From: Jannaschia faecimaris
GTDB taxonomy: Bacteria; Pseudomonadota; Alphaproteobacteria; Rhodobacterales; Rhodobacteraceae
Direction of reading: 5' to 3'
DNA length: 64,000 nucleotides
Assembly (NCBI RefSeq): GCF_900107415.1
Contig: NZ_FNPX01000016.1
Location: forward strand, 1 to 64,000
Under the pieces are notes generated by a model. It was not told the origin of the DNA and did not search any database. It saw only the letters and a list, made by a program, of their open reading frames with translations. The stretch's first letter is position 1; each line of letters opens with the position of its first letter. Below, one piece after another: positions 9,347 through 64,000 of the stretch. A program made the translations under genes and the position numbers.

Positions 9347-10021
9347 TCAATCCACCAAGTCGACGTCCAGACCCTGATGCCGCGCAAGTGCTTGTAGTCG
9401 TGAAAGGTGGTGTGTGCGCACAAAAGAGCCGTGGAATCGCGACGGGACCTTGAGGCGCAGCACTCCATCACGTTCCCCGAGCGTGACGAGCGGTGCGAAC
9501 CAGGCGTTGAACACCCCTGCGTCCTCGGCCTGAAGCGTCGTGGCGATGCGCGCCCAAGCCCCCTCCCCCATGACTGGAAATGGGACGACAGTCGGGTTGC
9601 TCTCGTCAACAGGCTTTGAACTCATTCGAACCACAAAGTCCGGACCGACATTTGCCCAGCAGGGTTCTGTCTGTCCAAGCAGTGCGTCCAGACCCAACCC
9701 GTAGCACGCGACCCGGCCGCGTGCGGCGGGTCGCTTCAAGATCAGCCAACCGAGCTCTCTGAGCCGTGCCATTTCACGTTTCACGGTCCGTTGGTCAACG
9801 GACCAGAGCGCTGCAATCTCCCGCTGCCCGGTGGTGAGCGAATCTTCCTGCCAGTTGTACCGTGCCGTCAGAAGCGTCATCAGGCGCAGGGCGATGCGCT
9901 GACGATGCTTGTCGCCAGCACAGCCAAACGCGCCGAGGGCGGTCAGTACGTCGTACTTCAAGGACGGTGTTTGACGTCCCTTAAGATTCGGTCGTCCCAT
10001 GTTTTGTCGGCCGAGACCCAT
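9347..10021 (-). CDS. DnaA-like plasmid replication initiator
   Basis: A 224-residue protein whose second part (about 155-215) resembles the N-terminal domain I of DnaA: AWARIATTL, then NAWFAPLVTLGERDGVLRLKV and SRFHGSFV. The first part (about 42-110) looks like a winged helix with Q(R)TVKREMARLRELGWL. There is no AAA+ ATPase or DnaA DNA-binding domain IV, so it is not chromosomal DnaA. This build matches the DnaA-like initiators of Rhodobacteraceae plasmids, and it lies divergently next to parA/parB as those do. ATG 10021 has AGGAGG 5 bp upstream. Confidence 0.8.
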   Translation of the reverse strand: MGLGRQNMGRPNLKGRQTPSLKYDVLTALGAFGCAGDKHRQRIALRLMTLLTARYNWQEDSLTTGQREIAALWSVDQRTVKREMARLRELGWLILKRPAARGRVACYGLGLDALLGQTEPCWANVGPDFVVRMSSKPVDESNPTVVPFPVMGEGAWARIATTLQAEDAGVFNAWFAPLVTLGERDGVLRLKVPSRFHGSFVRTHHLSRLQALARHQGLDVDLVD

Positions 10022-10159
10022 CTGGTCCTCCTGCCCTTTGCTGCTCGATCAACCGTTATTCCGGCTGTTGCCCTGATTTGCGTTGGATTTCGCGATTCTG
10101 TCAAGCACCGTTGTTCTGTATCGTAATCATAGAAATGAAATTGGTATGGATACGGTATA

Positions 10160-10204
10160 GGGGGACACTATGTCTGTCACCCTTGTTGAGCATTGTGTCC
10201 CCTC
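10160..10204. repeat. inverted pair of GGGGACA iteron-like repeats
   Basis: GGGGGACACTATG (10160-10172) faces CATTGTGTCCCCTC (10191-10204), giving arms that pair over GGGGACAC with about 20 bp between. Two further cores of the same type occur in reverse orientation at 10224-10236 and 10291-10300. Repeats of this kind beside an initiator gene are usual initiator-binding sites. Confidence 0.55.
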
Positions 10205-10301
10205 AAGCAGAGGTAGGAGCGTCCACCTGTCCCCCCAACATAAGGGTCTTCATACACGTCGGACGCGAATCGGTCTGCGTCGCTGCTGAGCCCTGTGTCC
10301 T

Positions 10302-10317
10302 TTTCCCCGCAGGGAAA
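10302..10317. repeat. candidate partition site (parS-like palindrome), copy 1
   Basis: TTTCCCCGCAGGGAAA matches the perfect palindrome at 12794-12809 with one mismatch. It lies 69 bp before the chosen parA start, a usual place for a ParB-bound or ParA-autoregulation site. Confidence 0.65.
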
Positions 10318-10385
10318 TGCCAAGTTGCAACAAAGCGATATTGCGGGATTTACCTGTTTGTCAATTTCGGCGTATTTCGGTTCCA

Positions 10386-11714
10386 ATGAATGAACAACGT
10401 TGGGGCGGACCTATGCTCGACTATCGCGACTTGCAGGCGATGCGCGACAGCTCACTGAAACTCCAAGGGTGGATTCGTCGGCAGACGTTTTCGCCCGGCA
10501 ACGAAAAGGTTCTGCGGCGCTTTTCGTCGTGGGAAGTATCGGAGTTGATTTTCCGCGTGAACCAGAACACCTTTCGCGGGCGGCTGGTCGCGGATCCGAC
10601 CTTGCCTTCGGGTGAGGTGGAGCAAGACGGGCGGCAGCGGTGGTTCAGTCTCGAGGAAGTGAACGAGCTGCGCCGGAAGCTCAAGATCAATCGCCAGACG
10701 TTGATGCCTCCCCGCCCCTCGGGCAAGCGCGCGATCCGGGTTGCGGTCAGCAACTTCAAAGGTGGCGCGGGCAAGTCGACGACCGCCCTTCACCTGGCTC
10801 ATGCGGCGGCGTTGGACGGCTACCGTGTTCTATGTGTCGACTTTGATCCGCAGGCCACGCTGAGCCATTCGATGGGTCTGAGTGACGTGAGCGAGGAGCA
10901 TACGGTCTGGGGGATTCTCGCGCGCGATCTGATCCGTGAAACGGAACGCATGAATTCCGCCACACAGGGTGCCGAGTCTGGCCGCAAGATGCCGCACCGT
11001 AAATTGCCGTCTTCGATTGCGGACACGGGGCTTGGTGATCTGCGCCAGTCCGATTTTATCAAGCCGACCTGCTGGTCGACAATCGACCTGGTTCCAAGCT
11101 GCGCGAATGCGGCATTCGTTGAGTTCGCAAGTGCGCAGTACCGGCACATGAATCCCGACTGGTCCTTCTTCGCTGCGGTATCACGCTGGCTCGATGCCCT
11201 GCCCCGGGACGCCTACGATCTGGTAATCTTCGATTGTCCGCCGGCGATCGGGTACCAGTCGATGAACGCTGTTTTCGCCGCGGACGTCCTCTACATCCCT
11301 TCGGGCCCGGGCTATTGGGAGTACGACTCCACGACGTCCTTCATTGGTCAGTTGTCCGAGGCACTCGAAGATCTTGTCGGTTTCGGCGATTTCCCCACGG
11401 GGAAATCCGATTTCGGGAAGACCTTCCTTGATGTGAGGTTTCTGTTGACCCGGTACGAGCCGGGTAACGATCTGCACCGCGCGATGAAGGATGCCTTTGG
11501 CAAGGTCTTCGGCGACCGCATGGCACAGAACCCGATCGAGCATACGCGCGCTGTGGAGCAGTCGGGGCGTTTTCTCAGTTCCGTCTACGAGATCGATTAT
11601 CGCGATATGACGCGGGAAACATGGCGCCGGGCGCGGTCCACCTTTGACACGGCTTACGGTGAATTCCGCGAAACAATTCTGACCGCATGGGACAAGATGG
11701 AGGATGAGGCATGA
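10386..11714 (+). CDS. parA: ParA-type partition ATPase
   Basis: A 442-residue ParA/Soj-family ATPase of the large, plasmid type. An N-terminal extension of about 115 residues contains a winged-helix-like segment (FSSWEVSELIFRVNQNTFRG), expected for self-regulating plasmid ParA. The deviant Walker A KGGAGKS is at 125-131, followed by VDFDPQATLSHSMG and the Walker B region LVIFDCPPAIG. Start: ATG 10386 is in frame but has poor spacing to any ribosome site; ATG 10413, preceded by GGGGCGGA, is the alternative. A 16-bp partition-like palindrome lies inside the gene (11390-11405). The stop overlaps parB (ATGA). Confidence 0.92.
   Translation: MNEQRWGGPMLDYRDLQAMRDSSLKLQGWIRRQTFSPGNEKVLRRFSSWEVSELIFRVNQNTFRGRLVADPTLPSGEVEQDGRQRWFSLEEVNELRRKLKINRQTLMPPRPSGKRAIRVAVSNFKGGAGKSTTALHLAHAAALDGYRVLCVDFDPQATLSHSMGLSDVSEEHTVWGILARDLIRETERMNSATQGAESGRKMPHRKLPSSIADTGLGDLRQSDFIKPTCWSTIDLVPSCANAAFVEFASAQYRHMNPDWSFFAAVSRWLDALPRDAYDLVIFDCPPAIGYQSMNAVFAADVLYIPSGPGYWEYDSTTSFIGQLSEALEDLVGFGDFPTGKSDFGKTFLDVRFLLTRYEPGNDLHRAMKDAFGKVFGDRMAQNPIEHTRAVEQSGRFLSSVYEIDYRDMTRETWRRARSTFDTAYGEFRETILTAWDKMEDEA
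11390..11405. repeat. candidate partition site (parS-like palindrome), copy 2, inside parA
   Basis: TTTCCCCACGGGGAAA differs from the perfect copy at 12794-12809 by one base. It lies within the parA coding sequence. Being the same 16-mer as sites before and after the module, it is unlikely to be chance. Confidence 0.6.
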
Positions 11715-12793
11715 GCCGCAAACGCCGTATATTCGATGTCGACCTTCCCGAGGATCCGGCCGAAGTCCCCGAAGAGGTGGAGACGAAATCCGCGCGACGG
11801 GGCCCTATGGCCTCGGCCATCGGCGAGGTAGGCGACGCGCGGCGGTATCGCGAGAAGATGGAAGCGGATATCCGCGCCGAGAATGACGCCTTGGCTCATG
11901 AGCTTGTCCGACTGAAAAAGCTGGGGTTGGTGACGGACCTTGTGCCGCTGGACGCGGTGCGGACGACCAAGCTGACACGGGACCGTCGTATCTCCGACCG
12001 TCTGGACCTCGCTGATCTGAAGACATCGCTGCGTGAGATCGGGTTGAGCAACCCCATCCGCGTCGAAGCGGACGGGGCAGGGGGGTATGAGCTGGTCCAG
12101 GGGCTGCGCCGCCTGACGGCTTACCGGGAGCTGCTGGCCGAGACGGAGGATGATTGTTGGGCGCAGATACCGGCGGGTATCCTGGCGGCGGGTCAGTCTG
12201 ATGCGGGGCTCTATCGCCGGATGGTCGATGAGAACCTGATCCGCAAGGATGTGAGTTTCGCCGAAATGGCCCAGTTGGCGCGGGCCTATGCGGCCGACCA
12301 CGTGGACGGGTGCACCAGTGTTGATGATGCGGTAAACGCATTGTTTGCCAGCGTGGCACCGCAAAAGCGCAGCTACATCCGCCGGTTTGCACTGGTGATG
12401 GCGGGGCTGGAGAAAGTGCTGGACCATCCATCTGCGATGTCGCGGTCTGTCGGGTTGGCGCTGGCGGATCGGCTTGAGGCGGATGCTACGTTTGTTGGCA
12501 CGGTCAGCGATGCGCTGCGGGTAAAGCCGGAACGAGATGCGGCGACGGAACTAGCCATTCTGCGGCAAGTGGTCGAAGGGCATGCGGCACCGTTGCCCAC
12601 GAAGAAGCGCGGTGCACCCAAAGGGCGAAGCGGACGGGTCGCCCTGTCTGTTCCGGTCGGGCCGGGCGTGCGGGCAACTGCGACGCAGGGCAAGATGGAG
12701 CTGCGTGCCGAGGTGGATTTCGGTGCCGTTGACCGAACGCGTCTTGAGAAGGCAATCGAGGCGTTCTGGCGGGAAATAGAGGCGGATACCTGA
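11711..12793 (+). CDS. parB: ParB-type centromere-binding protein
   Basis: A 360-residue ParB-family protein. The ParB/Srx-like domain is visible around residues 75-150: DLVPLDAVRTTKL, LADLKTSLREIGLSNPIRV and YELVQGLRRLTAYREL, matching the family's GERRyRA position. A helical DNA-binding region follows with NLIRKDVSFAEMAQLARAY. The acidic N-terminus (EDPAEVPEEVE) may contact ParA. It overlaps parA by 4 bp (ATGA). A perfect candidate partition palindrome begins 1 bp after its stop. Confidence 0.9.
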   Translation: MSRKRRIFDVDLPEDPAEVPEEVETKSARRGPMASAIGEVGDARRYREKMEADIRAENDALAHELVRLKKLGLVTDLVPLDAVRTTKLTRDRRISDRLDLADLKTSLREIGLSNPIRVEADGAGGYELVQGLRRLTAYRELLAETEDDCWAQIPAGILAAGQSDAGLYRRMVDENLIRKDVSFAEMAQLARAYAADHVDGCTSVDDAVNALFASVAPQKRSYIRRFALVMAGLEKVLDHPSAMSRSVGLALADRLEADATFVGTVSDALRVKPERDAATELAILRQVVEGHAAPLPTKKRGAPKGRSGRVALSVPVGPGVRATATQGKMELRAEVDFGAVDRTRLEKAIEAFWREIEADT

Positions 12794-12866: not shown

Positions 12867-13127
12867 ATGTGGACCGTTCAAGACGCAAAAGCTAAGTTCA
12901 GTGCCGTTGTCGAAGCTGCCCTCGCTGGTGAGCCGCAGCATGTCACTCGGCGCGGGGAGCCAGCGGTCGTGATCGTGTCCGAAGAGGATTGGGCGGCCCT
13001 TAACGAGTTGAAGAAACCGGTGATGTTCGGTGACATTATGGGCGACATTCCGCAGGCCCCGGACGATGAGCCGGACTTTGACTTCAAACGCCTCGGCAAT
13101 GCCCGCCCGCGCGACATCGATTTCTGA
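12867..13127 (+). CDS. Phd/YefM-family antitoxin
   Basis: An 86-residue antitoxin. The N-terminal Phd/YefM fold begins MWTVQDAKAKFSAVVEAAL, followed by HVTRRGEPAVVIVSEEDW, the usual DNA-binding/dimer unit. The acidic, disordered C-terminus (PQAPDDEPDFDF) would wrap the toxin. Its TGA overlaps the toxin ATG by one base. With the palindromic operator upstream it forms a complete addiction module, in line with a plasmid location beside parAB. Confidence 0.9.
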   Translation: MWTVQDAKAKFSAVVEAALAGEPQHVTRRGEPAVVIVSEEDWAALNELKKPVMFGDIMGDIPQAPDDEPDFDFKRLGNARPRDIDF

Positions 13128-15432: not shown

Positions 15433-18400
15433 ATGACCCCTCGCTTTTTCTCAACCAAGGACCGGCCCCCCTACCTGGGTCCCTATCCGGTCGAGAGGTT
15501 GGCGCGGTGCCACGACATGCCCGACCTGCAACTGGTGCCCGCGATGCGGCAGATGTCGTATCGACGGGCGGATGATCCGTTTTCCATCGTCAACGCCATG
15601 GGGGAGCATCAGGCCATGCTGGATGCGATCCGGGACGGGCTGGTCAACGGAGTGCGGTCCGATATTCCGGCAGACCCGGTGGAGCGTTCCAAGCATCTGA
15701 AAGGGTTCGGCTATTTCTGTGACGCGGCTGTGATTGGTGTGGGGCCGGTGCCCGAAGCCGCCCTGCTGCCCGTGCCATTTGTGAACCCGGACGTGGCGCG
15801 GTTGGTCGAGGATCTGAAGACCCGGCAGACCAAGACGCTCGCTTCCGGTATCGACACGATCATGGCGGATCTGCGAGATTCTGCGGACGCCCCGCCATCG
15901 CCGGTTGGCGGGCACACCCATGCGATCGTCCTGATGTACGAAAACCCCCGCGACCCGGAGTCCGGAGAGGCGGGGTGCGGCTGGATTGCGGACGCACAGG
16001 CGCACCGCGCCGGACTTCTTGCGGCCGAGACCGCGGCGGTCCTGTCCAACTACATCCGCCTGTTGGGGTTCGATGCCAAAGGGCATACCGTGTCCGCATC
16101 CGACGTGGATCTGGGGCGCTTGGCCGTGGCAGCGGGCGTGGCCACGGTCGAGGACGGGGTGCTTACGCATCCCTATGTCGGGCAACGGTTCGGACTGGCG
16201 GCGGTCACTACGACGCTTGACCTGGCGCGCGATCTGCCGCTGGCGCACAAGCAGCCGCCCGGCGCGTTCGGCTTGTCGTGGAAGTTGGGGCGCGGGACGG
16301 TGAAGTCGGCAGGCAACGCGGTGCCGTTCAAGGGGCGGCGCTTCGTGGACGGGGCGCATCCCTTCGAGACGCTGAAACGGGTCGACAAGCCCACCACTTA
16401 CATCGACGAACCCCGCGTGCCCCGGGTGCCCAAGCGTGCCGACCTGTTCGCGCGGGTGCAATTCGGCGACATGGGCAAACCGGTGCAGGATCAGGCGCGG
16501 GGCGGACATTACGTTCGCAAGGCGGCCCCCTCGATGGCCCAGCGGCGTGCTCTGGGGGCATTCGTCCTGTTGCAGGACGGGGAGACGGCGGCGAAAACGA
16601 CAGTATTAGAGCCTGAAAACGCGGCGGAGCTGGTCAAGGCGACAGCCTACTGGCTTGGCGTAGATGCCGTTGGAATCAGCCGCTGCCCGGACTGGACCTG
16701 GTACAGCCATGACGCGCGCGGCGATCCGATCGACCCGCCGCATGACCAGGCGATCAGCATGATCGTGGACCAAGGCTACGATACGATGGAGGGCGCATCC
16801 GGTGACGACTGGATCAGCGTGGCGCAGTCGATGCGGGCCTATTTGCGGTTTTCCCTGCTGGGCGGGGTGATTGCGGCGCAGATCCGGCGCTTGGGATATT
16901 CCGCCAAGGCGCATTCGGTGATGGACGGGGAGGTGTTGCAGCCGCCGCTCCTCCTGCTGTCAGGTTTGGGCGAGGTCAGCCGGATTGGTGAAGTGATCCT
17001 GAACCCGTTTCTTGGCCCCCGTCTGAAATCCGGCGTCGTGACGACCGATCTGCCGATGGCGCACGACAGGCCGATCGATTTCGGACTGCAGAGTTTTTGC
17101 GAAAGCTGCAACAAATGCGCGCGGGAATGTCCGTCGGGGGCGATCACCGCCGGGCCAAAGCTGATGTTCAACGGCTACGAGATCTGGAAATCCGACAGCC
17201 AGAAATGCGCCACCTACCGCATCGGGACAGAGGGCGGCGCAATGTGTGGACGGTGCATGAAAACCTGTCCCTGGAACCTTGAGGGGCTGTTTGCCGAAGC
17301 CCCGTTCCGCTGGGCCGCGATGAACGTACCACGGGCCGCGCCGCTTCTGGCGAAGCTGGATGACGCGGTCGGCAATGGCGGATTGAACCCGGTCAAGAAG
17401 TGGTGGTGGGACCTGGAGATCGAGGAAGACGGAGCCTACCGGCCGACGCGCAAGCCGGTGAATGCGCGCGATTTGCAGCGCGATCTGGATCTCCGCTATG
17501 CGGATCAGACGTTGGCCGTATATCCCGCGCCACTTGCCCCGCATCCCTATCCGTACCCCGCCCCGATGGACCGGGAGGCAGGGATCGAAGCATATCAGGC
17601 GATGATCACTGCTGATGAGTATCGGGCGCGGTTAGAGCGCGGAGAGGTGCCTACCGACCACGTCTATACAGCTGCGGGCGGATCCCCGGTCATACAGCTG
17701 CGCGTTGATCGGGCGGAGACGGTGGCCGAGGGGGTCATGGCTTTCGATCTTGTGTCGCCAGAAGGCGCAGACCTGCCGGCGTGGCAAGCAGGCGCGCATC
17801 TGGACGTGGTCGTGGCCCCCGAGTTCCTGCGCCAGTATTCGATGTGGGGTGATCCGGCGGACCGGTCGCGGTACCGGATCGGCGTTCTGCGCGAAGCTGG
17901 CGGGCGGGGTGGCTCGGCCCTGATGCACCGTATTTTCACGCCTGGGCGGACGGTCTTCGTGTCCAGGCCGATCAACCATTTCCCGGTCCACCCGGCCCCG
18001 CATTCGGTGCTGATGGGCGGGGGCATCGGGATCACGCCGATGATCGCGATGGCGCATGAATTGCACCGGGCGGGGTCATCTTTCGCGCTGCATTATTCAG
18101 GCCGGTCGCGGGCGACTATGGGGTTTCTGCCGGAGCTGCGCGCAGCGCGATGGGCCGACCATGTGCAGGTTCATATCACCGACGAAGAGACACGGGCCGA
18201 TATGGCCACCGTGATGGCGGATCTGCCCGCAGGAACGCATGTCTATGTCTGTGGGGCGGAGCGCTACATGGCTGCCGTCATGGCGGCTGCAGCGGCCGCC
18301 GGAGTGCCCGAAGAGGCGCGGCATCTGGAGTATTTCAACGTCCCCGACTTGCCCCCCTACGAAAACCACCCCTTCATTCTGCGACTGATCCGGTCAGGAC

Positions 18401-18633
18401 GCGAAATTGCCGTGCCAGCCGACCAGACAGCGACCGACGTGCTGGCCCAAAAGGGCGTGCACGTGGACGTCAAATGTAGCGATGGAATTTGCGGCGTGTG
18501 CAAATGTGGGCTGATTTCCGGGACGGTAGAGCACCGGGATTTTGTTTTGTCCAAGGCGCAACGGGAAAGTGCGATCATCCTTTGTCAGAGCCGCGCTGCG
18601 CAACCGGGCGGCATCGTCGAGATCGATTTGTAG
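15433..18633 (+). CDS. self-sufficient reductive dehalogenase fused to a flavin/2Fe-2S reductase
   Basis: A 1066-residue fusion. The dehalogenase part (to about 620) ends in two 4Fe-4S motifs: C556-C559-C562-C566 and C592-C605-C608-C612, the arrangement of RdhA enzymes, with the B12-binding region before it. A phthalate-dioxygenase-reductase-type module follows: FMN motif RQYS (800-803), nucleotide motif GGGIGITP (about 861-868), and a C-terminal plant-type 2Fe-2S site with C1015, C1020, C1023 and C1051. This is the BhbA type of cytosolic, catabolic reductive dehalogenase, which takes electrons from NAD(P)H and needs no membrane anchor; accordingly there is no Tat signal and no rdhB. ATG 15433 has AGGAG upstream. 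Likely substrates are halogenated phenols; the true one is unknown. Confidence 0.9.
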   Translation: MTPRFFSTKDRPPYLGPYPVERLARCHDMPDLQLVPAMRQMSYRRADDPFSIVNAMGEHQAMLDAIRDGLVNGVRSDIPADPVERSKHLKGFGYFCDAAVIGVGPVPEAALLPVPFVNPDVARLVEDLKTRQTKTLASGIDTIMADLRDSADAPPSPVGGHTHAIVLMYENPRDPESGEAGCGWIADAQAHRAGLLAAETAAVLSNYIRLLGFDAKGHTVSASDVDLGRLAVAAGVATVEDGVLTHPYVGQRFGLAAVTTTLDLARDLPLAHKQPPGAFGLSWKLGRGTVKSAGNAVPFKGRRFVDGAHPFETLKRVDKPTTYIDEPRVPRVPKRADLFARVQFGDMGKPVQDQARGGHYVRKAAPSMAQRRALGAFVLLQDGETAAKTTVLEPENAAELVKATAYWLGVDAVGISRCPDWTWYSHDARGDPIDPPHDQAISMIVDQGYDTMEGASGDDWISVAQSMRAYLRFSLLGGVIAAQIRRLGYSAKAHSVMDGEVLQPPLLLLSGLGEVSRIGEVILNPFLGPRLKSGVVTTDLPMAHDRPIDFGLQSFCESCNKCARECPSGAITAGPKLMFNGYEIWKSDSQKCATYRIGTEGGAMCGRCMKTCPWNLEGLFAEAPFRWAAMNVPRAAPLLAKLDDAVGNGGLNPVKKWWWDLEIEEDGAYRPTRKPVNARDLQRDLDLRYADQTLAVYPAPLAPHPYPYPAPMDREAGIEAYQAMITADEYRARLERGEVPTDHVYTAAGGSPVIQLRVDRAETVAEGVMAFDLVSPEGADLPAWQAGAHLDVVVAPEFLRQYSMWGDPADRSRYRIGVLREAGGRGGSALMHRIFTPGRTVFVSRPINHFPVHPAPHSVLMGGGIGITPMIAMAHELHRAGSSFALHYSGRSRATMGFLPELRAARWADHVQVHITDEETRADMATVMADLPAGTHVYVCGAERYMAAVMAAAAAAGVPEEARHLEYFNVPDLPPYENHPFILRLIRSGREIAVPADQTATDVLAQKGVHVDVKCSDGICGVCKCGLISGTVEHRDFVLSKAQRESAIILCQSRAAQPGGIVEIDL

Positions 18634-19338: not shown

Positions 19339-20178
19339 ATGAAGCCCCTTTTGTTCCTTTTGATGACGGCGTTGCCCGCGAGCGCCCAAACTTTGTATTT
19401 CTCTGCCATCCCCGACGATGACGAGACCCGGTTGGTGGAAAGATTCAGCGCCGTCGCCGCGTATCTGGAGGGGGAACTGGGCGTGGATGTCGAATACATC
19501 CCGGTCAAAAGTTATGCCGCCGCCGTGACTGCCTTCCGTAATGACCAGATTCAGTTGGGGTGGTTCGGTGGACTATCGGGGGTGCAGGCGCGTCTTGCCG
19601 TGCCCGGATCGCGGGCTTTGGCCCAAGGCGCGGAGGACGAAACCTTCGTGAGCTACTTCATCGCCAATACCGACACCGGGTTGGAGCGGACGCAGACGTT
19701 CCCCAACCTGGCAGGGCGAAGCTTTACCTTTGGCGCGCAGACCTCCACCTCGGGACGGCTGATGCCGGAATACTGGCTGCGCGAAGAGACGGGGCAGGCC
19801 CCTGCGGAGTTGTTCTCGGACGTGGGGTATTCGGGCGACCACGGTCAAACCCTGCGGCTGGTGGCGTCCGGGGCCTACGAGGTCGGGGCGATGAACTTCT
19901 CGGTCTATGACAACGCGGTGGCCCAAGGCGCGCCGGAGGTGGAGCGTGCACGCATCATCTGGCAGACACCACCCTATCCCGACTACAACTGGACGATCCG
20001 CGGCGACGTGGATGCGCGCTTTGGTGAGGGCTTTGCCGACCGGGTGCAGGCGGTTCTGGTGGGCATGGACGATGCCGATCTGCTGGCGTCCTTTCCGCGC
20101 TCCGCCTTCATCCCGGCGGATAACGCCCTGTATCAGCCGATCGAAGACACGGCCCGCGACCTGGACATCATCGACTGA
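19339..20178 (+). CDS. phosphonate/phosphite-type ABC transporter substrate-binding protein
   Basis: A 279-residue PhnD-family periplasmic protein. A signal peptide spans residues 1-16, with cleavage after ASA. Family features include the AAVTAFRNDQIQLGWFGGLSG block and the TFGAQTSTSGRLMP loop, where Ser/Thr residues usually bind the phosphonate or phosphite. It is the first gene of a three-gene transporter; its TGA overlaps the ATPase ATG by one base. Ligand not known. Confidence 0.85.
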   Translation: MKPLLFLLMTALPASAQTLYFSAIPDDDETRLVERFSAVAAYLEGELGVDVEYIPVKSYAAAVTAFRNDQIQLGWFGGLSGVQARLAVPGSRALAQGAEDETFVSYFIANTDTGLERTQTFPNLAGRSFTFGAQTSTSGRLMPEYWLREETGQAPAELFSDVGYSGDHGQTLRLVASGAYEVGAMNFSVYDNAVAQGAPEVERARIIWQTPPYPDYNWTIRGDVDARFGEGFADRVQAVLVGMDDADLLASFPRSAFIPADNALYQPIEDTARDLDIID

Positions 20179-25593: not shown

Positions 25594-25669
25594 GTTTTTC
25601 CCAGTCTTGAAATAGTCACGCACGGCGAACCCGGGTGGGCCGCCGCGCGCAGGTCGTTTCAGGTGGTGC

Positions 25670-26641: not shown

Positions 26642-26709
26642 TTGGTACTCTCCCTTTGTGGGCAGCAAGGCGCCGCCTCCGGTTCCTACGGGGCCCACTG
26701 CAGGTTCAC

Positions 26710-49145: not shown

Positions 49146-49161
49146 TTTTGGGAGAGATGTG

Positions 49162-55036: not shown

Positions 55037-55285
55037 TCACGCGCTGAAGATCCGCGGCGTGATGATCTGTGCCTGCGCCCAGGCGGTGCGCAGCGGCCCG
55101 CGCTCGGGCAACTCCATCCGGCGCAGGGTCGACAGCGTCCAGGTCAGACAGGTCAACGGCAGGGTCGCCAGGAAGATCAGGGCGAAATACGCGTAGTATT
55201 CCCGCTGATGCGCCCGCACGCGGCGGGATTTGTGCCCGGTCACCTGCGGTGTGAAATCAATATGGTCCGTCGTGAAGTCGGTCAT
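55037..55285 (-). CDS. pufQ: PufQ, bacteriochlorophyll-related membrane protein
   Basis: An 82-residue protein with one membrane helix (about 30-48, [20 protein letters not shown]) after a charged N-terminus ([13 protein letters not shown]). Its place between bchZ and pufB is that of pufQ; PufQ promotes Bchl synthesis or carries intermediates. ATG 55285 overlaps the bchZ stop (ATGA). Confidence 0.92.
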
Positions 55286-56745
55286 GTCCTGTCTCCTCCG
55301 GTCTTGGGTTGCAGCCGGTCGAGCGTCGCAAGAACGACCCGTTCGGCCCCCTCTTCGAGCGCGGCTTTTTCAGCCGCGTCGCGCAGGGATTTGGCCGCCG
55401 AAATCCGGGTCAGGACCGGATGAGAGGCGACAATTTCGTCAAGGCGGGCCTGCGCGTCGGCATCCCAAGGGAAGTCGCGGCGCAGGGGCGTGGGTGTGGC
55501 GGGAGTCGCGTCCATCTCCGCGCCGAGCGGCAGGATGTGGAACAGCGCATCGAAGAGGCCGTTGCAGACTTCTTGAATGAGGTAGGTGGCCCCGCCGTAG
55601 CCCATGAAGGGCGTACCGGTGTGACGGCGGATCGCGGCCCCCGGAAAGCTGGCGGGGATGAACGCCGGGGACGGGCCGAATCCGCCCTTTGTCTCGGCGA
55701 GATACATCTTCTCGTTGATCGACCCCATCAGGATCATTGGCCGTTTGTCGTGCACCATGGCACGGACGCGATCATTATCTGTTTTCTTGCCGCGGGTGCG
55801 CGCCACGGCGAAAGCACAAGGCAGGCCCATCTCGTTTTCAAGGAAATTGCGGATACCGCGGGCATAGGTTTCGGTTGCGACGATGCCAAAACTGGACGTT
55901 GAAAAGAAATCCTGTGTGACCGAACGCCAGAGATCCCAGACGGGTTTGAGCGTTGAATGCTTCTCCGCCTCGATGAAAGGTTCGGGGTCGAGGCCCGTCA
56001 ACTCGCCCAGCTTGCGCAGGAACTTTGTTGTGGAATCGATACCGATGGGGGCCTGCAGATACGGCTTGGACAGCACTTCGCACAGGCCCCTGCCAAACTC
56101 CCGGTACATCGTGACGTTGACGTCGGCATTCACCAGGTTGCGCATTTCGGCGACGTGCGCGCCCAGCGGCATGACCATGTTGATCTCGGCTCCGATACCT
56201 TCGACCAAGCGCCGGATCTCGGCCAGGTCGGAAGGCATGTTGAAGGTGCCGTACATCGGCCCGAGGATGTTGACGCGGGGCGCGGCATCTTCGGCGCGCT
56301 TCTTCTCGGGCGGCATCCGGCCTTTGGTCATGCCGAATTCCGTGAAGATCCAGGTCATCGCGCGGTCGGCGCTTTCCCATTGGTCTTCGTCGATGGTGCG
56401 CGGCAGGAAGCGCTGGATATTCGTCCCCTGGGGGGTCACGCCGCCGCCGATCATCTCGGCGATCGAACCGGTGACGACGACCGCAGGCAGTGCCGGGTCG
56501 AGGGTCTGCCAGGCGCGCTTCATCGCCTCCTCGGTACCCGATCCCATCTCGTCTTCCGACAACCCGGTAACGACGATCGGCAGCTCGTGCGGCGGCAGGC
56601 CGTCAGTGTAATGCAGCACCGAGGTCACCGGCAGGTTCTCGCACCCGACCGGGCCGTCGATCACCACCTGCAAGCCCTTGACGGCGCAGAAGGCATAAAC
56701 GGCACCCCAGTATCCGCCAGCACGATCATGGTCTTGCACCAACAT
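55282..56745 (-). CDS. bchZ: chlorophyllide a reductase subunit Z
   Basis: A 487-residue NifK-like subunit of chlorophyllide reductase (ring B). [20 protein letters not shown] carries a cluster Cys; [19 protein letters not shown] and [20 protein letters not shown] are typical. ATG 56745 shares one base with the bchY stop (TGATG). Confidence 0.96.
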
Positions 56746-58328
56746 CAGATCATCTCCGATGCTTTTGCAGCGCGGGCGCGCTTTTCGATTTTCTTGAGGT
56801 TTTGGGCCCGGAACTGTGGGTGCAAGTTCGGTGCGCCGTTCCAGACACCGGCGGTGTCGCCCTTGCCCACACCCTCGAAAAAGGCGCGCATCGTATCCAT
56901 CCGACCCTTGTTGGCCATGGCCGTTCCGACGACTTCGGTCAGCGATCCGGCACCGGCGATTCCCATCAGGGGCCGCGCCGAAATCAGGTTCGTATAGTAG
57001 AGCGACGGAATGCCCATCTCCTTGCCCTTCTGCACCACGGGAGTGGTGCCGATAGCAAGGTCGGGGCGTATCGCTTCCATCGCCGACAGATCGTCTTCCA
57101 GCGAGGCGCGGAACTTGACGCGTGTGCCGCGTGCCTCCAGCCAAGCCGCGTCGTCCGCGGACCAGCGGGACTTGGCGCAGGCCGTGCCGACATAGGGAAT
57201 CTCTGCGCCGCTTTCGATCAGCAGTCGCGCAACCAGCAACTCCGACCCCTCATAGCCCGAGAGCGTGATCGTGCCATTGATCGGGTTCGCGGCCAGACCA
57301 CCCTTGATGGCGGGCAGCACGGCATTCTGTGCCTCGGCGATCCTGTCAGCCGGCAGGCCGAACGCGGCACCAATGTTGGCCAGCCAACTTGCCGTGCCCT
57401 CGTACCCGACGGGCGCGGAGCCGACGATCGGTCGACCGGCAGCTTCAAACTCACGAACGGAGGCAGTGTAGAAGGGGTGGATCGCGGCGACGACACTGCA
57501 ATCCAGCGCGCCATAGAGCTCGCGCCATTCGCGGCAGGGCACAACAGGACCGGCGGCCAGACCCAGCGGGGCCAGCATCGCGCCGATCATCATCGGGTCG
57601 GCAGGGAACATCTCGCCCAACAGGGCGACGGTCGGCCGGTCCGATTTGCCTGCGTCGGGCCGCGCCACCGGGCCGGCCTCGATCTCTTTGCGGGCGTAAT
57701 TCAGCATCGCACCGGCCAGCACATCCTTGGCCTCGGCGTGGGTGGGAACGCCAAATCCCGGCACGTCGATACCGATGATGCGGACGCCGTCGATTTCCTC
57801 GGGCAGCAGGCGCAACGGCACACCGGAGGCCGTGGGCACGCAGAGGTTGGTGACCACGATCGCATCCAGACGGTCACCGTCGGCCAGATCGTGCACCGCT
57901 TCGCGGATATCCTCGAACAGTTTGCCGGTAACGAGTGTTTCGGAATTGAACGGGACGTATCCGACCGAGCGGCGCGCACCGTAGAAGTGTGAGACGAACG
58001 ACAACCCGTAAACGCAGCAGGCGGATCCGGACAGGATCGTCGCGACCCGCTTCATCCGCAGACCAACGCGCAGCGATCCGAAGGCAGGGCACATGCTTTG
58101 CGGCTGATCGTGGGGGCCGGTGGGATAGTCGGCGGCGTACTTTTCCAGCAGCTCGGACTGGCCAGCGGCGCGCGCGGCCTCCTTCAGGGTGGAGGCCGAA
58201 GTGCAGGCCCCCTGAGGGGCCGCCATATCCGGTACCGGGGCCGCATCGGTGAGGGGCGCATTGGCTTCGGTGATCTCCACCGTGCCGGCGTCGTCGTAGG
58301 AGACGTTATATCCCTCGCGCTCAGACAT
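56745..58328 (-). CDS. bchY: chlorophyllide a reductase subunit Y
   Basis: A 527-residue NifD-like subunit. The Cys-rich [20 protein letters not shown] and [20 protein letters not shown] give cluster ligands; [20 protein letters not shown] follows. The extra N-terminal 60 residues (acidic, Ala/Pro-rich) are usual for BchY. ATG 58328 overlaps bchX by 8 bp. Confidence 0.96.
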
Positions 58329-59328
58329 CGTCGTACACGACCTCAAGGCTTTCCTTCGGCTTGGACTTGGTGCCGCGCATGTCGGCATCCGTGGCAGGCA
58401 CCAGAACGACATCGCCGCCGGTATCCTTGCTATCGAACAGCGCGAGCAGCCCGTCCTGATCAAGTGCAGCCGGCCGTACCGGGGGGGCCACGGCCACTTC
58501 GTCACCGAGGGCCGCAAACAAGCTGCCCCACTGGCTCTCGGAGGTGCCGACGATCTGATAATTGGCAGATTTCTTGCGCAGGTCATCGTCCTGCGGAATG
58601 GCGGCCAGGACAGGGATCCCGACGGTCTTGGCAAAGGCCGCAGCCTCGCCGGTGCCATCGTCCTTGTTAATGACGAGGCCCGCAACACCCACGTTGCCAC
58701 CCAGCTTGCGGAAGTATTCAACAGCTGAACAGACGTTGTTGGCCACATAGAGCGACTGAAGGTCGTTCGACGCAACCAGGATCACCTTCTGCGCCATGTC
58801 GCGGGCAATCGGCAGACCGAAGCCACCGCAGACAACGTCGCCCAGAAAGTCGAGCAGGACATAATCGAAATCCCAATCATGGAAGCCCAGCTTCTCCAGC
58901 AGCTCAAAGCCGTGGATGATGCCGCGTCCGCCGCAGCCGCGGCCAACCTCAGGCCCACCCAACTCCATGGCGAAAACACCGCCGCGCTTGAAACAGACGT
59001 CGCCGATGGCGACCTCTTCGCCAGCGAGCTTCTTTTTGGAGGATGTCTCGATGATCGTCGGGCACGCCTTGCCCCCGAACAGCAAAGACGTGGTGTCGGA
59101 TTTCGGATCGCACCCGATCAGGAGGACGCGCTTGCCCTGTTCGGCCATCATGTGGCTGAGGTTGGCCAGCGTGAACGACTTTCCGATACCGCCCTTGCCA
59201 TAGATCGCGATGATCTGAGTTTTTGACGTTGGTTCGCCCTGCGGCACTTCAAGCGTCACATCTTCGTTGGCTTCGTCGCGCAGACGCTGGTTGAAGTCGC
59301 GCAGGTCGGGGACGGTGTCGAGAGTCAT
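58321..59328 (-). CDS. bchX: chlorophyllide a reductase iron protein X
   Basis: A 335-residue NifH-like ATPase. The P-loop [20 protein letters not shown] has the BchX-typical Phe after GKS. Cluster Cys lie in [14 protein letters not shown] and [17 protein letters not shown] 59328 has GGAAGG upstream and overlaps the bchC stop region by 4 bp. Confidence 0.97.
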
Positions 59329-60266
59329 GCTGAGCCTTCCCAATCAAGGATCATTTTCAGGCAGGCGGGGTCGTCGAACGCCTGTTGGTAAGCTGCGGGC
59401 GCGTCGTTCGCCGCCCGGCGGTGTGTGATCAGCCCATCCATCGAAAGCGCACCGGACTCGATCAGCGCGCGCGTCGCCAACAGGTCTCCGCTGGTCCATT
59501 CGGCGGCGACGCGGAAGCGGGCTTCCTTCATGAAGGCGGGGGGGAACGCGAAACTGATAGGTGCGGGATAGAACCCCGCAAGCACGATCTCCCCACCCTT
59601 TGCCAGGCGACCGATAAGGTCGGGGATCAGACCCGCGTCGCCGGATGCGTCGTAGATCGAAGTGTAATTGCGGCGGTCATCAGCTTCAGGGTGCACGACC
59701 TTGTAGCCCGTGGCGCCGGCACAGCGACCGATGTTCTTTTCCCAAACGGTGGGCGGCTTGCCACCAGCGGCGACGGTAAGGCGGGCCAGCAGACGCCCCA
59801 GCACACCGTGGCCAACAATCAGATCCGGCAGTTCGGCCCGGGGTCCGGCCATGGCATGGCGCGCGGTCGCGGCCAGTGCCAGAAGGGCACCGCGTGCTCC
59901 GTGCGCACCGTCCAGGCGAACACAGCGCGACGCATCGCTGACCAATGTGCGGGCCGCGCCGCCGAACAGGCCGTGCGCCCCTTCGTAGCAGTTGGCACCG
60001 GGCACGAAGACCGTGTCGCCGACATTGAAGTTGGAAAGCGCACCTGCATCGACGACCTCGCCCGACGCTTCGTAGCCGGGGACCAGTGGATAGCCCATGC
60101 CGGGAAACGGCGGCATGTCACCGGACCAAAACAGTTTTTCAGTCCCGGTCGAGATACCCGAATGGCGAACCTGAATAACGACATCCGACGGGCCGGGGGT
60201 ACAGAGCGGGAGCTTGTCGAGCGACAATGCGCGCGGGCCGCTGAGGATGATGGCGTCTGTTTCCAA
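59325..60266 (-). CDS. bchC: 3-hydroxyethyl bacteriochlorophyllide a dehydrogenase
   Basis: A 313-residue zinc-less alcohol-dehydrogenase-like protein oxidising the 3-hydroxyethyl group to acetyl. [20 protein letters not shown] and [15 protein letters not shown] are diagnostic. The start is TTG 60266 with GGAGG 5 bp upstream; no ATG gives the right N-terminus ([13 protein letters not shown]). It heads bchCXYZ-puf. A PpsR site lies 66-83 bp upstream. Confidence 0.95.
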
Positions 60267-60379: not shown

Positions 60380-61486
60380 TCACGATGAAACAGACGCCTG
60401 AAGGACCGATGTCACGAACGGCCGTAGCGGCCGGACGGGCCGCGCCACATCGAAACCGGCGGTGCCGCACAGGGTCGCAATCTCAGCAAAGCTCCGGGTT
60501 CGACCCGTTCGCATCGCCATAGTGTACAGGGAAAAGTAAGCGTCTGCGGCCCTTTCCGGAACATCCCCACCGGACATCGGCTCGGAGATGATCAGCCGCC
60601 CGCCGGGTGGCAATGCCGTACGGCATTTCGACAAAAGATCAGCAATTGTTTCATCGTCATGGTCATACAGAACCCGCACCAGCGAGATCGCGTCGCACCC
60701 GTCCGGCAGGGAATCATCGCGGAAAGATCCCGGCACAATGTCCACACGGGCTGACAGTCCAGCGGACGCAAAACGCGCTGTCGCCTGGGGCACAACCTGG
60801 GGCAAATCGAACAAGACCAGCGCCATATCCGGGTTCGCCGACGCGGCCGCAGTCAGGAAGGCCCCTGCCCCGCCGCCCACGTCGCACAATCGTTTCACGC
60901 CGCGCAAAGACACCCGCCGCAGCGTGTCCTCTGCCACCATCGCCTGGCTCTCGGTCATCAGGCGGGAGTACCGTGCGGCCTCTGTGGGCCCCATCTCACC
61001 GCCAAAGACGTAGGGCCAGAAACCGGCCAGTTCCGTTTCGACGTCACCCCGAAAAAACGCGACCGGATCGGCAAGATCGCGGTAGAGTACGTCGTGATGC
61101 CGGATCATGTCGCGCAGGCCCGGCACCCCCACCATCGCAGCCCCCTTCCGGGTCAGCGAGAATCTTCCGTCGCGCTTGCGCTTGAGCAGGCCAAGCGACG
61201 CGGCACCCTGTAAAAGGACTTTCATCCGCGCCTCGGGCACCTCGCAGCGCAGGGCAAGCGCGGCAGGTTTTGCCGGTCGCTCCATCAAAATGTCGGGAAT
61301 GTCGAACTGGACCAGCGCCGAAAGGATCTGGCTGTGGCAAAACCCCGCGACAAGATCGAATAGCGCCTCTCCATCGCGACGGACCAACCCTTGTGTCAGG
61401 GGAAAGCGCGCAGCCCAACCCTGGAACCGGGGCGACGCGATCAGGCGATGCGTCCACCCGGGACGAAGGGGGGCGACGGCGGCCAT
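60380..61486 (-). CDS. crtF: hydroxyneurosporene-type carotenoid O-methyltransferase
   Basis: A 368-residue SAM methyltransferase making the methoxy group of spheroidene/spirilloxanthin carotenoids. An N-terminal dimerisation part ([20 protein letters not shown]) precedes motif [17 protein letters not shown] near residue 198, and [16 protein letters not shown] 61486 directly follows the crtE stop. Confidence 0.95.
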
Positions 61487-62365
61487 CTATTCGCCGGGCA
61501 CCTGCGATGCACGCCATTTCAGCGGTGTCAGAACTTCGGCCTGCGCGGTCACCAACTTGGCGAGATGCGCCTCGCCCGGACATTTCGGGATCGAGGATAT
61601 CGCGCCCGACAGGATATCACGCATCCGGCTGATGGCTCCCTGCACACCCAGTTGCGAAACCGCGTTGGGACGTCCATGCAGGTCATCCTGACCCACTGGC
61701 TTGCCCAGCGTTTCCTCATCATAGAGTGCATCGCGCAGGTCATCGGCCACCTGAAACGCCTCGCCGATGCGATCGCCCAGATCCTCCCAGGCCTCCGCAT
61801 CATGTCCGGCGGCCACCGCACCCATCTGGGTCGCGGCAATGAACAGCGCGGCGGTCTTGGCTCGGTGGTATGCGCGCAGATCGACTTCGGCTTCACTCTC
61901 CCAGCCCTGACCGGCACAGATCCCGTTCGGCATACCGGTGCGGGTCGCCAATATCTCGATCAGTTTTGCGGCGCGCAGCGGGTCCTGCGGTGCCGCGCGA
62001 GCCAGCACCTCGAATGCCATGACGATAAGGCTGTCTCCCGCCAGAATCGCCAGCGGCTGACCAAAGGCACGGTGGACGGCGGGCTTGCCACGCCGGATGT
62101 CGGCATCATCAAAACAGGGCAAATCATCGTGCACCAACGAAGCGCAGTGGATCAGCTCCAGCGCGCAGGCGGCGGCATCGGCCAACGCGGGACGATCATC
62201 GCCACACGCCGCTGACACCGACAACAGCAAGGTCGGGCGGATTCGGGCCCCGCCAGGCGTGACCGTATAATGCAGAGCCGAGGCAAGCTTGCCGGGTGAC
62301 GGTCGGGCCTGTCCCCGTGCAATGGCAGCCTGGATTGCGCGGTCGATACGGTCGGACAAGCCCAT
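61487..62365 (-). CDS. crtE: geranylgeranyl diphosphate synthase
   Basis: A 292-residue prenyltransferase. The first Asp-rich motif is VHDDLPCFDDADIRRGKP, with the usual insert; the second is FQVADDLRDAL. GGARIRPTLLL precedes them. ATG 62365 has AGGAGGTGG upstream. It starts crtE-crtF, which read on toward bchC, and shares a PpsR-site promoter region with crtD. Confidence 0.95.
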   Translation of the reverse strand: MGLSDRIDRAIQAAIARGQARPSPGKLASALHYTVTPGGARIRPTLLLSVSAACGDDRPALADAAACALELIHCASLVHDDLPCFDDADIRRGKPAVHRAFGQPLAILAGDSLIVMAFEVLARAAPQDPLRAAKLIEILATRTGMPNGICAGQGWESEAEVDLRAYHRAKTAALFIAATQMGAVAAGHDAEAWEDLGDRIGEAFQVADDLRDALYDEETLGKPVGQDDLHGRPNAVSQLGVQGAISRMRDILSGAISSIPKCPGEAHLAKLVTAQAEVLTPLKWRASQVPGE

Positions 62366-62413
62366 GATGCCACCTCCTGAAACAAGGTGTTTTGCACGAT
62401 GAAGCGGCAAAAC

Positions 62414-62431
62414 TGTAAATTACAGTGGACA
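62414..62431. promoter_or_regulatory. PpsR/CrtJ site in the crtE-crtD divergent promoter
   Basis: TGTaaattacagtggACA is an exact TGT-N12-ACA, 49 bp before crtE and 42 bp before crtD. Its right end supplies a TGGACA -35-like box for crtD with AACACT 17 bp on. Confidence 0.82.
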
Positions 62432-62472
62432 CATGGCTGCCAGCTGTCAACACTACAGGTCAGGAGATGTAT

Positions 62473-64000
62473 ATGCCCGAGACGACAGACCAATCCGGCG
62501 TTTACGTGATCGGGGCCGGGATCGGCGGACTCTCGGCTGCGCTGCGCCTTGCACATGCGGGCCTGCCCATCACGGTACTGGAACGTCAGGCCACGCCGGG
62601 CGGAAAAATGCGGTGTACGCCGTCCGACGCCGGTCCGGTTGATGCCGGACCCACGGTCCTGACCCTTCGGCCCGTATTCGAGGCCCTGTTCGCCGACGTT
62701 GGCGAATCGCTTTCTGAACACGTGACTCTGCACGCGAACCCGGTCCTTGCCCGGCATTTCTGGTCCGACGGCACACGACTGGACCTGATGGCCGACCCCG
62801 CCGCCAGCCGCGCCAACATCGAAGCCGTGTTCGGAACACGGGCCCGCGACGACTTCGACCGTTTCAGCAACCGCGCCCGCCGCCTGTTCGAGGCTTTCGA
62901 CCTGCCGATGATGCAATCGGCCGCCCCGTCGCAGGCGCGGCTTGCCAGACGCGTACTGCGAAACCCTGCATTGATTGCCGACATGGCCCCGCACCGCAGC
63001 CTGATGTCCCTGCTTGATGAAGCCTTTCAGGAACCGAAGCTGGCGCAGCTATTCGCGCGCTACGCCACTTATGTCGGCGGTCTGCCGCACCATGCGCCGG
63101 CCCTGCTGTCGCTGATCTGGCAGGCCGAGGCGCAGGGGGTCTGGTCCGTCAAAGGCGGAATGCACCGCCTCGCCCAGGCGATTGCGCGGCTGGCGCAGGC
63201 ACGCGGCGCACGCATCCTTTACGGTCAGACCGTCACCGGGCTCCTAATGAGGGACCGTCGCGTAAGCGGCATCGTGACCCGGACCGACCGTTTTGCCACC
63301 GATCAGGTTGTTTTCAACGGCGATCCACGTGCCCTGCAGACCGGGCTTTTGGGACAAGGCGTCAGCCGGGCAGTGCCCGCCGCCTCGGTGGAGCCCCGCA
63401 GCCTATCGGCACATGTCCATACCTTTGCAGCCAGACCGCAGGGGCCTGACCTTGCCGCGCATAACGTTTTCTTCGCGGACAAGCCGATGGCTGAATTCGG
63501 GCCGTTGGCGCGGGGTCTCGTCCCCGAGGATGCGACCCTCTACATCTGTGCCCAGGACCGGGGCGGCGGGGCCTCGCCCAACGCGCTGGAAAGGTTCGAA
63601 ATCATCCGCAACGCCCCCCCGACCCTGTCGGACAACCACGATCCGACCGAGGAGACCACCCAATGTCACACCCGGACTTTCCAGCGCCTGGCCCGGTTCG
63701 GGCTGCGGTTTTCGCCCGCGCCGCAAGTCACGACGCTCACGACGCCGACGGATTTCGCGGCGCTGTTTCCCGGCAGTCAGGGGTCCCTCTACGGGCGATC
63801 CCCCGCGGGGCTGACGGCGGCGCTGAAACGGCCGCGGGCGCGAACGGCGGTGCCGGGGCTCTATCTGGTGGGCGGGGGCGCACATCCGGGGGCGGGGGTC
63901 CCAATGGCGACGCTCTCCGCCCGGCATGCGGCCGAGGCGATTCTGGCGGACCGAACTTCGACCTCTCTGTCCCATCTGGCGGCTACGCCTGGTGGTATGT
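62473..64000 (+). CDS. crtD: carotenoid 3,4-desaturase CrtD (right end cut by window)
   Basis: At least 509 residues, open at the window edge but close to its end by family length. A phytoene-desaturase-like FAD enzyme: VYVIGAGIGGLSAALRLAHA at 11-30, then GGKMRCTPSDAGPVDAGPTV, and the C-terminal GLYLVGGGAHPGAGVPMATL. The divergent partner crtE and the place before an expected crtC identify CrtD over CrtI. ATG 62473 has AGGAG 6 bp upstream; the earlier ATG 62467 touches that site. Confidence 0.9.
   Translation, partial: MPETTDQSGVYVIGAGIGGLSAALRLAHAGLPITVLERQATPGGKMRCTPSDAGPVDAGPTVLTLRPVFEALFADVGESLSEHVTLHANPVLARHFWSDGTRLDLMADPAASRANIEAVFGTRARDDFDRFSNRARRLFEAFDLPMMQSAAPSQARLARRVLRNPALIADMAPHRSLMSLLDEAFQEPKLAQLFARYATYVGGLPHHAPALLSLIWQAEAQGVWSVKGGMHRLAQAIARLAQARGARILYGQTVTGLLMRDRRVSGIVTRTDRFATDQVVFNGDPRALQTGLLGQGVSRAVPAASVEPRSLSAHVHTFAARPQGPDLAAHNVFFADKPMAEFGPLARGLVPEDATLYICAQDRGGGASPNALERFEIIRNAPPTLSDNHDPTEETTQCHTRTFQRLARFGLRFSPAPQVTTLTTPTDFAALFPGSQGSLYGRSPAGLTAALKRPRARTAVPGLYLVGGGAHPGAGVPMATLSARHAAEAILADRTSTSLSHLAATPGGM

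What the first reader, a model, noticed from the sequence alone, without database searches (positions are those of the whole stretch)
9347..64000. Photosynthesis gene cluster linked to a DnaA-like plasmid replication and partition module
The window joins a DnaA-like initiator, parA/parB and a toxin-antitoxin pair to an almost complete photosynthesis cluster within 16 kb. This indicates an extrachromosomal photosynthesis replicon, as known in Roseobacter litoralis and Sulfitobacter guttiformis. Here it differs in carrying pufX, inositol catabolism, thiamine salvage and a dehalogenase, so it may be a separate lineage of such plasmids.
Basis: partly seen in the sequence, partly recalled or inferred. 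Interest (0 to 1): 0.75.

Follow-up and report, generated by a model that had tools for sequence, protein, structure and literature searches.

The report
Photosynthesis plasmid replacing a lost cluster
This is a circular plasmid, already described in print, that carries the photosynthesis genes of a marine bacterium; the new point is that the chromosome still seems to bear the scar of an older, different photosynthesis cluster, whose leftover genes include the two that the plasmid cluster lacks.

Summary
In detail: a DnaA-like initiator, parAB and a Phd/VapC pair lie 16 kb from a photosynthesis gene cluster (PGC). The 89,326-bp contig has an exact 95-bp terminal overlap; closing it completes a LacI-type gene; GC skew turns at the initiator; chromosomal dnaA is elsewhere. 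It is a plasmid.

It is not new: size, contig number and GC match Jannaschia faecimaris in Liu et al. 2019 (PMC6739100), which describes this PufX-type replicon, lacking idi and cyc2.

Not found in print: a chromosomal scar. In 9 of 9 Jannaschia with a chromosomal PufC-type PGC it starts beside hslV (6 of 9 end at thiQP). In J. faecimaris that place holds hslUV-idi-ppsR2-cyc2-thiQP, in native order and orientation. PpsR2 nests among native PpsR; joining it to plasmid PpsR is rejected (p-AU 4e-11). So the plasmid PGC looks like a replacement, not the host's own cluster moved out as Liu et al. proposed, with relict genes supplying what it lacks. All 11 genus members without a native PGC keep remnants there; ppsR2 stays in 4 of 4 with a PGC plasmid, 0 of 7 without. 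PpsR2's function is inferred.

The parts
9347..10021 (-). DnaA-like replication initiator (224 aa)
   Evidence: Pfam DnaA_N 31.8 bits; 289 plasmid records hold a relative; GC-skew minimum here
10022..10412 (.). Probable origin region between divergent initiator and parA; repeats TGTCCCC(T/C)CAA at 10196 and 10228, an inverted GGGGGACA nearby
   Evidence: block conserved in 6 of 6 aligned Jannaschia plasmids; pattern found twice in the window, 0.15 expected, 1 of 100 shuffles as high
10413..11714 (+). ParA
   Evidence: tree
11711..12793 (+). ParB
   Evidence: (Pfam score just under cut-off)
12867..13127 (+). Phd/YefM-type antitoxin
   Evidence: PF02604, 54.3 bits
13127..13543 (+). VapC/PIN toxin
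   Evidence: PF01850, 50.3 bits
1312..9084 (.). Inositol catabolism block (IolE-, IolD-, IolC-, IolB-like, aldolase, two Gfo/Idh/MocA); also on the PGC-less sister plasmid G001:C14
   Evidence: sharing
15433..18633 (+). Reductive dehalogenase fused to ferredoxin/flavin reductase (1066 aa)
   Evidence: TIGR02486 over cut-off, Fer2
19339..26698 (.). Two phosphonate-type ABC uptake systems (with a HAD hydrolase gene between)
26808..26904 (+). TPP riboswitch
   Evidence: Rfam RF00059, 67.9 bits
26938..29152 (+). ThiM, ThiE, ThiD thiamine salvage
29158..36055 (-). hemA, puhE, acsF, a small conserved gene, puhC, puhB, puhA, lhaA
   Evidence: blastp to R. litoralis PGC
36052..44434 (-). bchM, L, H, B, N, F
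44764..46892 (+). ppaA and plasmid ppsR (TIGR02040, 346.4 bits, cut-off 275.4)
47017..50346 (+). bchG, PucC-family transporter, bchP; about 110 bp to dxs, no idi between
50457..52358 (-). dxs
52441..52677 (-). pufX in the place of pufC
   Evidence: PF11511 78.4 bits
52696..55285 (-). pufM, L, A, B, Q
   Evidence: PufQ
55282..60116 (-). bchZ, Y, X, C
60380..64000 (.). crtF, crtE, crtD; PGC goes on outside the window to bchO at contig position 72222

Best explanation
The window is most of a circular 89.2-kb DnaA-like plasmid of Jannaschia faecimaris that carries a PufX-type PGC. Shown: the contig closes, skew and conserved repeats put the origin at the initiator/parA gap, partition and addiction genes are present, and the plasmid PGC lacks idi and cyc2, which lie on the chromosome with a PpsR-like gene. 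Strongly inferred from gene order and trees: the host line once had a different, PufC-type PGC between hslUV and thiQP, deleted except for idi, ppsR and cyc2. Inferred: phototrophy here runs on both replicons, the plasmid giving pigments, reaction centre and antenna, the chromosome giving isopentenyl-diphosphate isomerase and the soluble electron carrier. Inferred, weaker: the plasmid arrived before or as the native cluster was deleted, so ppsR2 was kept, perhaps as a second regulator.
For: Identity: 3,810,757 bp in 48 contigs, contig GC 63.95, PGC GC 64.01, 87.23 and 42.06 kb if kb = 1024 bp against 3.81 Mb, 48 contigs, 63.95, 64.01, 87.2 and 42 in print. Plasmid. Native site: hslV-crtC flank in 9 of 9 PufC species, tspO-thiQP in 6 of 9. 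Scar hslUV-idi(<)-ppsR2(<)-cyc2(>)-thiQP, same order and orientation as in the native PGC. Remnants at this place in 11 of 11 species without a native PGC, 10 of them with two or more genes, all in native order. PpsR2 with native PpsR (8 of the 9 native species in the tree) against all 21 other rows 100/100; joined to plasmid PpsR rejected, p-AU 3.8e-11; native PpsR as a clade without PpsR2 rejected, p-AU 2.3e-4. Scar idi are mixed among native idi. In 17 of 17 non-Jannaschia loci where dxs and bchP adjoin, idi lies between them, as in G013's PufX PGC; the four Jannaschia plasmids have no idi and no cyc2 hit. ppsR2 is a full open frame with a conserved DNA-binding end in 4 of 4; pN 0.29-0.46 against pS 0.60-0.67 in the 4 of 6 pairs compared.
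Against: PpsR2 sits on long branches and scores under the PpsR equivalog cut-off (222.6 against 275.4), so its place could be helped by long-branch effects. The idi tree does not make scar plus native idi one clade (not rejected either, p-AU 0.28): G013's PufX-cluster idi and one outside idi (L114) fall among them. Three native PGCs (G005, G014, G016) lack thiQP in the stretch fetched; the G009 scar lacks hslV, G008 lacks thiQP, G017 has only weak partial thiQP matches, G013 keeps idi alone. The crtI-like remnants are only 37-41% identical to native crtI. The tie of ppsR2 to the plasmid (4 of 4 against 0 of 7; Fisher 0.003) rests on only 2-3 independent pairs in a poorly resolved species tree. 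I had no search left to look at hslUV-thiQP outside the genus, or for ppsR2 elsewhere in the genomes. No expression data.
Confidence: 0.82

Rival explanations
1. Liu et al. 2019: the Jannaschia plasmid PGC is the product of a first move of a chromosomal PGC onto an extrachromosomal replicon (initial stage), in the simplest form the host's own cluster.
For: The cluster is one unbroken block and its tetranucleotide make-up is within the range of a chromosomal contig.
Against: The host scar derives from a PufC-type cluster while the plasmid cluster is PufX-type; plasmid PpsR groups with Sulfitobacter PufX plasmids (100/99); PufM is 71-76% identical to the nine native ones but 83-93% to the four other PufX-type ones in the genus.
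Confidence: 0.07
2. idi-cyc2 at hslUV-thiQP is an old housekeeping pair, and ppsR2 was inserted there later as a regulator; no native PGC was ever deleted in this lineage.
For: idi is present in 20 of 20 genomes; idi and cyc2 sit together in genomes without PufM too (G001, G007, G008, G009).
Against: The native PGC lies between these very flanks with idi, ppsR and cyc2 spread over 22 kb in the same order; one insertion cannot interleave them. Some scars also keep crtD or tspO in order. PpsR2 nests in native PpsR.
Confidence: 0.08
3. The par module belongs to an element integrated in the main chromosome.
For: None found.
Against: Terminal overlap, gene completed by closure, skew, dnaA elsewhere.
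Confidence: 0.02
4. ppsR2 is a decaying relict with no role; its link to the plasmid is shared ancestry. (This concerns PpsR2 only and is compatible with the replacement reading.)
For: Fast divergence (41-58% identity in the pairs compared); few independent contrasts.
Against: Open frame and HTH kept in 4 of 4, pN below pS in 4 of 4 pairs compared; not at the scar in 7 of 7 without the plasmid.
Confidence: 0.3

Closest known systems
Jannaschia faecimaris phototrophic ECR, Liu et al. 2019 (PMC6739100)
   Same: The same replicon: size, GC, PGC size, PufX, DnaA-like I, no idi or cyc2
   Different: Main text has 0 hits for remnant, vestig, hslU, inositol, dehalogenase, permut; I add closure, skew origin, sister plasmids and the chromosomal scar
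Plasmids of J. donghaensis and J. pohangensis (same paper; G011:C1 and, by size and GC, G006:C18)
   Same: PufX PGC, same gene order, same rep orientation; terminal overlaps 90 and 95 bp
   Different: G006 rep module is in another ParA subclade (99/98), shared with modules of G007, G016 and G018 whose contigs hold no PufM; accessory modules differ
pRLO149_94 of Roseobacter litoralis (NC_015741), Thalassococcus pS3A, Tateyamaria omphalii pDOK1-4-3, Roseobacter ponti p1
   Same: DnaA-like plasmid PGCs with rep between hemA and bchO
   Different: pufC, idi and cyc2 kept; rep inverted; accessory DNA on the other side of the PGC; separate ParA clade
Sulfitobacter plasmids (S. alexandrii, Sulfitobacter sp. 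S190) and S. sediminilitoris contig G061:C4
   Same: PufX-type PGC, nearest in the 19-gene PGC tree if rooted on the Roseobacter group
   Different: keep idi and cyc2; bchG-ppsR junction opened; S190 and S. alexandrii ParA only 60% identical
Brinkmann et al. 2018 (PMC6052148) scenario of PGC transfer and replacement
   Same: Infers PGC loss and replacement from trees (passages)
   Different: 'remnant', 'relic', 'vestig', 'hslU': 0 hits in the main text; supplements not seen

Membership tests
DnaA-like plasmid | short DnaA-like initiator divergent from parAB | tested here: met
DnaA-like I plasmid | compatibility group I assignment | tested here: inconclusive
   ParA groups broadly with R. litoralis-type modules called group I in print; but Liu et al. 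also call the S. alexandrii module group I, whose ParA is only 60% identical and far off in the tree. No group references were built
Circular plasmid | closed circle | tested here: met
   95-bp overlap, gene completed across the join, skew; no long reads
Circular plasmid | dispensable, no core genes | tested here: inconclusive
   no tRNA in window, dnaA and rpoB elsewhere; 16S absent from the whole assembly; curing not testable
PufX-type PGC | pufX, no pufC | tested here: met
Complete Rhodobacteraceae PGC | idi and cyc2 in the cluster | tested here: not met
   no hit on the contig; both on contig C12
PpsR/CrtJ (for chromosomal PpsR2) | over the TIGR02040 equivalog cut-off | tested here: not met
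   222.6 of 275.4 bits, though aligned over the full profile
PpsR/CrtJ (for chromosomal PpsR2) | redox/light repressor of PGC promoters | not testable with these tools
   needs bench work

The most novel reading that the evidence does not exclude
In one genus phototrophy was lost and re-supplied by a plasmid more than once: a foreign PufX cluster displaced the native PufC cluster, trimmed idi and cyc2 because the chromosome kept them, and the relict PpsR was kept as a cross-replicon regulator of the newcomer, so that neither replicon alone makes a phototroph.
Probability: 0.4. Interest if true: 0.75.

Novelty: new variant of a known kind. Interest (0 to 1): 0.58.

Why it matters
Whether patchy phototrophy in Rhodobacteraceae reflects old clusters lost or new ones gained has been argued from tree conflicts. 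Here there is a fixed chromosomal address with a PGC in 9 species and graded remnants in 11, so loss can be read directly, and in 4 of the 11 a plasmid cluster of another type has taken over. It turns the debate into locus-by-locus checks, argues against the 'initial translocation' reading of the Jannaschia plasmids, and gives a case of a pathway split over two replicons by complementary gene loss. The replicon itself is already known; the novelty rating refers to the split, replaced system.

Tried and rejected
Host naming by 16S failed: no SSU match in the assembly. The one genome-contig scan (best 80 loci kept) did not return this genome; identity rests on the match to the published table. 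Looking for a separate plasmid lineage by accessory genes led nowhere, because the modules mix.

The idea that type I and type II clusters are circular permutations (rep in the hemA-bchO interval in 11 of 11 plasmids mapped) was kept as a side remark. The junction survey of 80 loci (18 closed, 35 scored open, 27 too short) does not decide it: five of the 35 in fact have bchP near puf, and many clusters simply show nothing of the PGC beyond dxs in the flank.

PpsR boxes (TGT-N12-ACA, motif recalled): 13 in the PGC against 4.4 expected by base shuffling, but over the whole window only 10 against 6.6 by dinucleotide shuffling, 15 of 100 shuffles as high, so I make no claim from them. No ppsR trace was found by blastx in the idi-cyc2 gaps of G001, G007, G008 and G009 (best E 0.25).

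The first rpoB trees were wrong, because some loci were read on the wrong strand, and are not used; one search replaces them. The 19-gene PGC tree holds no native PufC Jannaschia rows. The test called H3 is empty in an unrooted tree. The rows of the idi tree from other genera were chosen because they had idi, so that tree says nothing of how common idi is; I use for that. The blast step ran with an empty query and was redone. The Rponti map has 942 unfetched bases filled with N.
Full report
Observation. PufX is confirmed. The window is positions 1-64000 of contig C5 (89,326 bp) in a 3,810,757-bp, 48-contig genome.

Plasmid, not chromosome. The contig ends share an exact 95-bp overlap. Closing it joins two gene pieces into one 343-aa LacI-type regulator whose relatives on two other contigs align over all 343 residues. 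Cumulative GC skew has its minimum at the initiator and its maximum 46 kb away, as expected for bidirectional replication of an 89.2-kb circle. Chromosomal dnaA and rpoB lie on other contigs. The contig's tetranucleotide distance to contig C11, which bears dnaA (0.093-0.135 in 7 windows), is within that of 20 windows of C11 itself (0.074-0.148).

Already in print. Liu et al. 2019 (PMC6739100; outline, passages and sections 6, 9 and 12 read) list J. faecimaris with genome 3.81 Mb, 48 contigs, phototrophic replicon 87.2 kb at 63.95% GC, PGC 42 kb at 64.01% GC. Here: 63.95%, 64.01%, and 87.23 and 42.06 units of 1024 bp. They report the DnaA-like I module, PufX type, an unbroken block, and lack of idi and cyc2, and read it as an initial stage of chromosome-to-plasmid translocation.

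Sister plasmids. In 20 genus genomes PufM is found in 14 and PufX in 5. Four PufX clusters lie on contigs with a DnaA-like module and exact terminal overlaps: C5, G019:C33 (124,925 bp), G011:C1 (67,245 bp, the J. donghaensis contig) and G006:C18 (50,639 bp, which fits J. pohangensis in the paper's table by size and GC). G013 has a PufX cluster on a 2.55-Mb contig. G001:C14 (57,092 bp, 95-bp overlap) shares the module and the inositol block but has no PGC. The four plasmid PGCs form one clade (G006,(G019,(C5,G011))), with Sulfitobacter PufX plasmids next when rooted on the Roseobacter group (19 genes, 7,919 columns, 12 rows). Their ParA fall in two supported subclades of a genus-wide clade, G006 with modules of G007, G016 and G018, the others with those of G001 and G004, none of these five on a contig with PufM: the PGC has changed backbone, or the backbone its module. 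In 11 of 11 PGC plasmids mapped the module lies in the hemA-bchO interval, in one orientation in 6 and the other in 5.

The chromosomal scar. Because idi and cyc2 are missing from the plasmid I looked for them in the genome: both lie on contig C12, 1.7 kb apart, with a PpsR-like gene between them (C12:350195-351706). The order is hslU-hslV-idi-ppsR2-cyc2-thiQ-thiP (ThiQ and ThiP are my names for an ABC ATPase and a large permease). In G004 (its plasmid equals that of Jannaschia sp. M317 by coordinates and length) a PufC-type PGC lies between hslV and thiQ, with idi(<), ppsR(<) and cyc2(>) in this order and orientation. The hslV-crtC flank is there in 9 of 9 PufC species (in G014 with about 1 kb between), tspO-thiQP in 6 of 9. 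At the same place the 11 other genomes keep: idi-ppsR2-cyc2 (G000, G011, G019); the same plus a crtI-like gene (G006); idi-cyc2 (G001, G007); idi-cyc2-crtI-like-tspO (G009); crtD-idi-cyc2-tspO (G008); idi-crtI-like-tspO (G012, G017); idi alone (G013). Exceptions in flanks: no hslV in the 13 kb fetched for G009, no thiQP in G008, weak partial thiQP matches in G017.

Whose ppsR is it? In a tree of 33 PpsR (native rows from 8 of the 9 PufC species; G005 was fetched later), the four PpsR2 are one group (100/99) inside the native PufC-type PpsR of Jannaschia; native plus PpsR2 split from all others at 100/100. Joining PpsR2 with plasmid PpsR costs 95.9 log units (p-AU 3.8e-11); making native PpsR a clade without PpsR2 is rejected (p-AU 2.3e-4). 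Long branches are a caveat, but gene order is independent evidence. Scar idi are mixed with native idi in the idi tree, for instance G008 with G005 and G016 (99/95), which also go together in the species tree; that tree also puts G013's PufX-cluster idi and one idi from another genus among them.

Reading. Well supported: an ancestral PufC cluster at hslUV-thiQP, deleted to different degrees in 11 of 20 genomes; a PufX cluster on plasmids in four of these; idi and cyc2 gone from the plasmid and kept in the scar. Inferred: complementary supply, and the order of events. Since ppsR went from the scar in 7 of 7 lineages without the plasmid and stayed in 4 of 4 with it (Fisher 0.003), the plasmid may have been present when the native cluster was lost; but this is 2-3 independent pairs only, and one of the seven, G013, has a PufX cluster on its chromosome. 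PpsR2 is under constraint (pN 0.29-0.46, pS 0.60-0.67; HTH end conserved), so a role is likely but untested.

Literature. Searches that bear on prior report: (two returned no paper; others listed 20 of 48, 15 of 16 and 15 of 31). I opened four papers: PMC6739100 (as above); PMC6052148 (sections 12, 14, 17 and passages); PMC3176799 and PMC3141670 (passages). The main texts of PMC6739100 and PMC6052148 have no hit for 'remnant', 'vestig' or 'hslU'. The others, among them PMC13386836, PMC12654162 and PMC4149021, I saw only in the listings. Subscription papers and supplements were not seen, so 'not found in print' means in these searches.

Noticed in passing
window 15433-18633: 1066-aa reductive dehalogenase fused to an oxygenase-type reductase with a 2Fe-2S domain; relatives at 84% on two of the sister PGC plasmids (G019, G011), and similar DNA on another Jannaschia sp. 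M317 plasmid.
   Followed up: partly
window 10190-10240: Repeats TGTCCCC(T/C)CAA and an inverted copy between the initiator and parA, conserved in 6 of 6 Jannaschia plasmids aligned; possible iterons or parS.
   Followed up: partly
G001:C14 (L140-L142): Sister contig of 57 kb with a 95-bp terminal overlap, the same rep module and inositol block but no PGC.
   Followed up: partly
G019:C33 87-109 kb: About 22 kb of other DNA opens the dxs-bchP junction that is shut in the other three Jannaschia plasmids.
   Followed up: no
L260-L261, L283-L285, idi-hslV gap: A TGT-N12-ACA site at the same aligned place upstream of hslV in 4 of 4 species with a PGC plasmid; none in this gap in the other scars scanned. 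No chance control was run for the gap.
   Followed up: partly
L049 / G061:C4: Sulfitobacter sediminilitoris contig of 139 kb carries a PufX-type PGC with a DnaA-like module between bchO and hemA; not among the 13 strains of the 2019 table.
   Followed up: partly
L217 412-1095: PLSDB's automatic resistance call labels a DnaA-like plasmid initiator as MexK efflux pump; it looks like a mislabel.
   Followed up: no
G000 assembly: No 16S rRNA match in an assembly rated 99.95% complete; rRNA operons may have been left out of the contigs.
   Followed up: no
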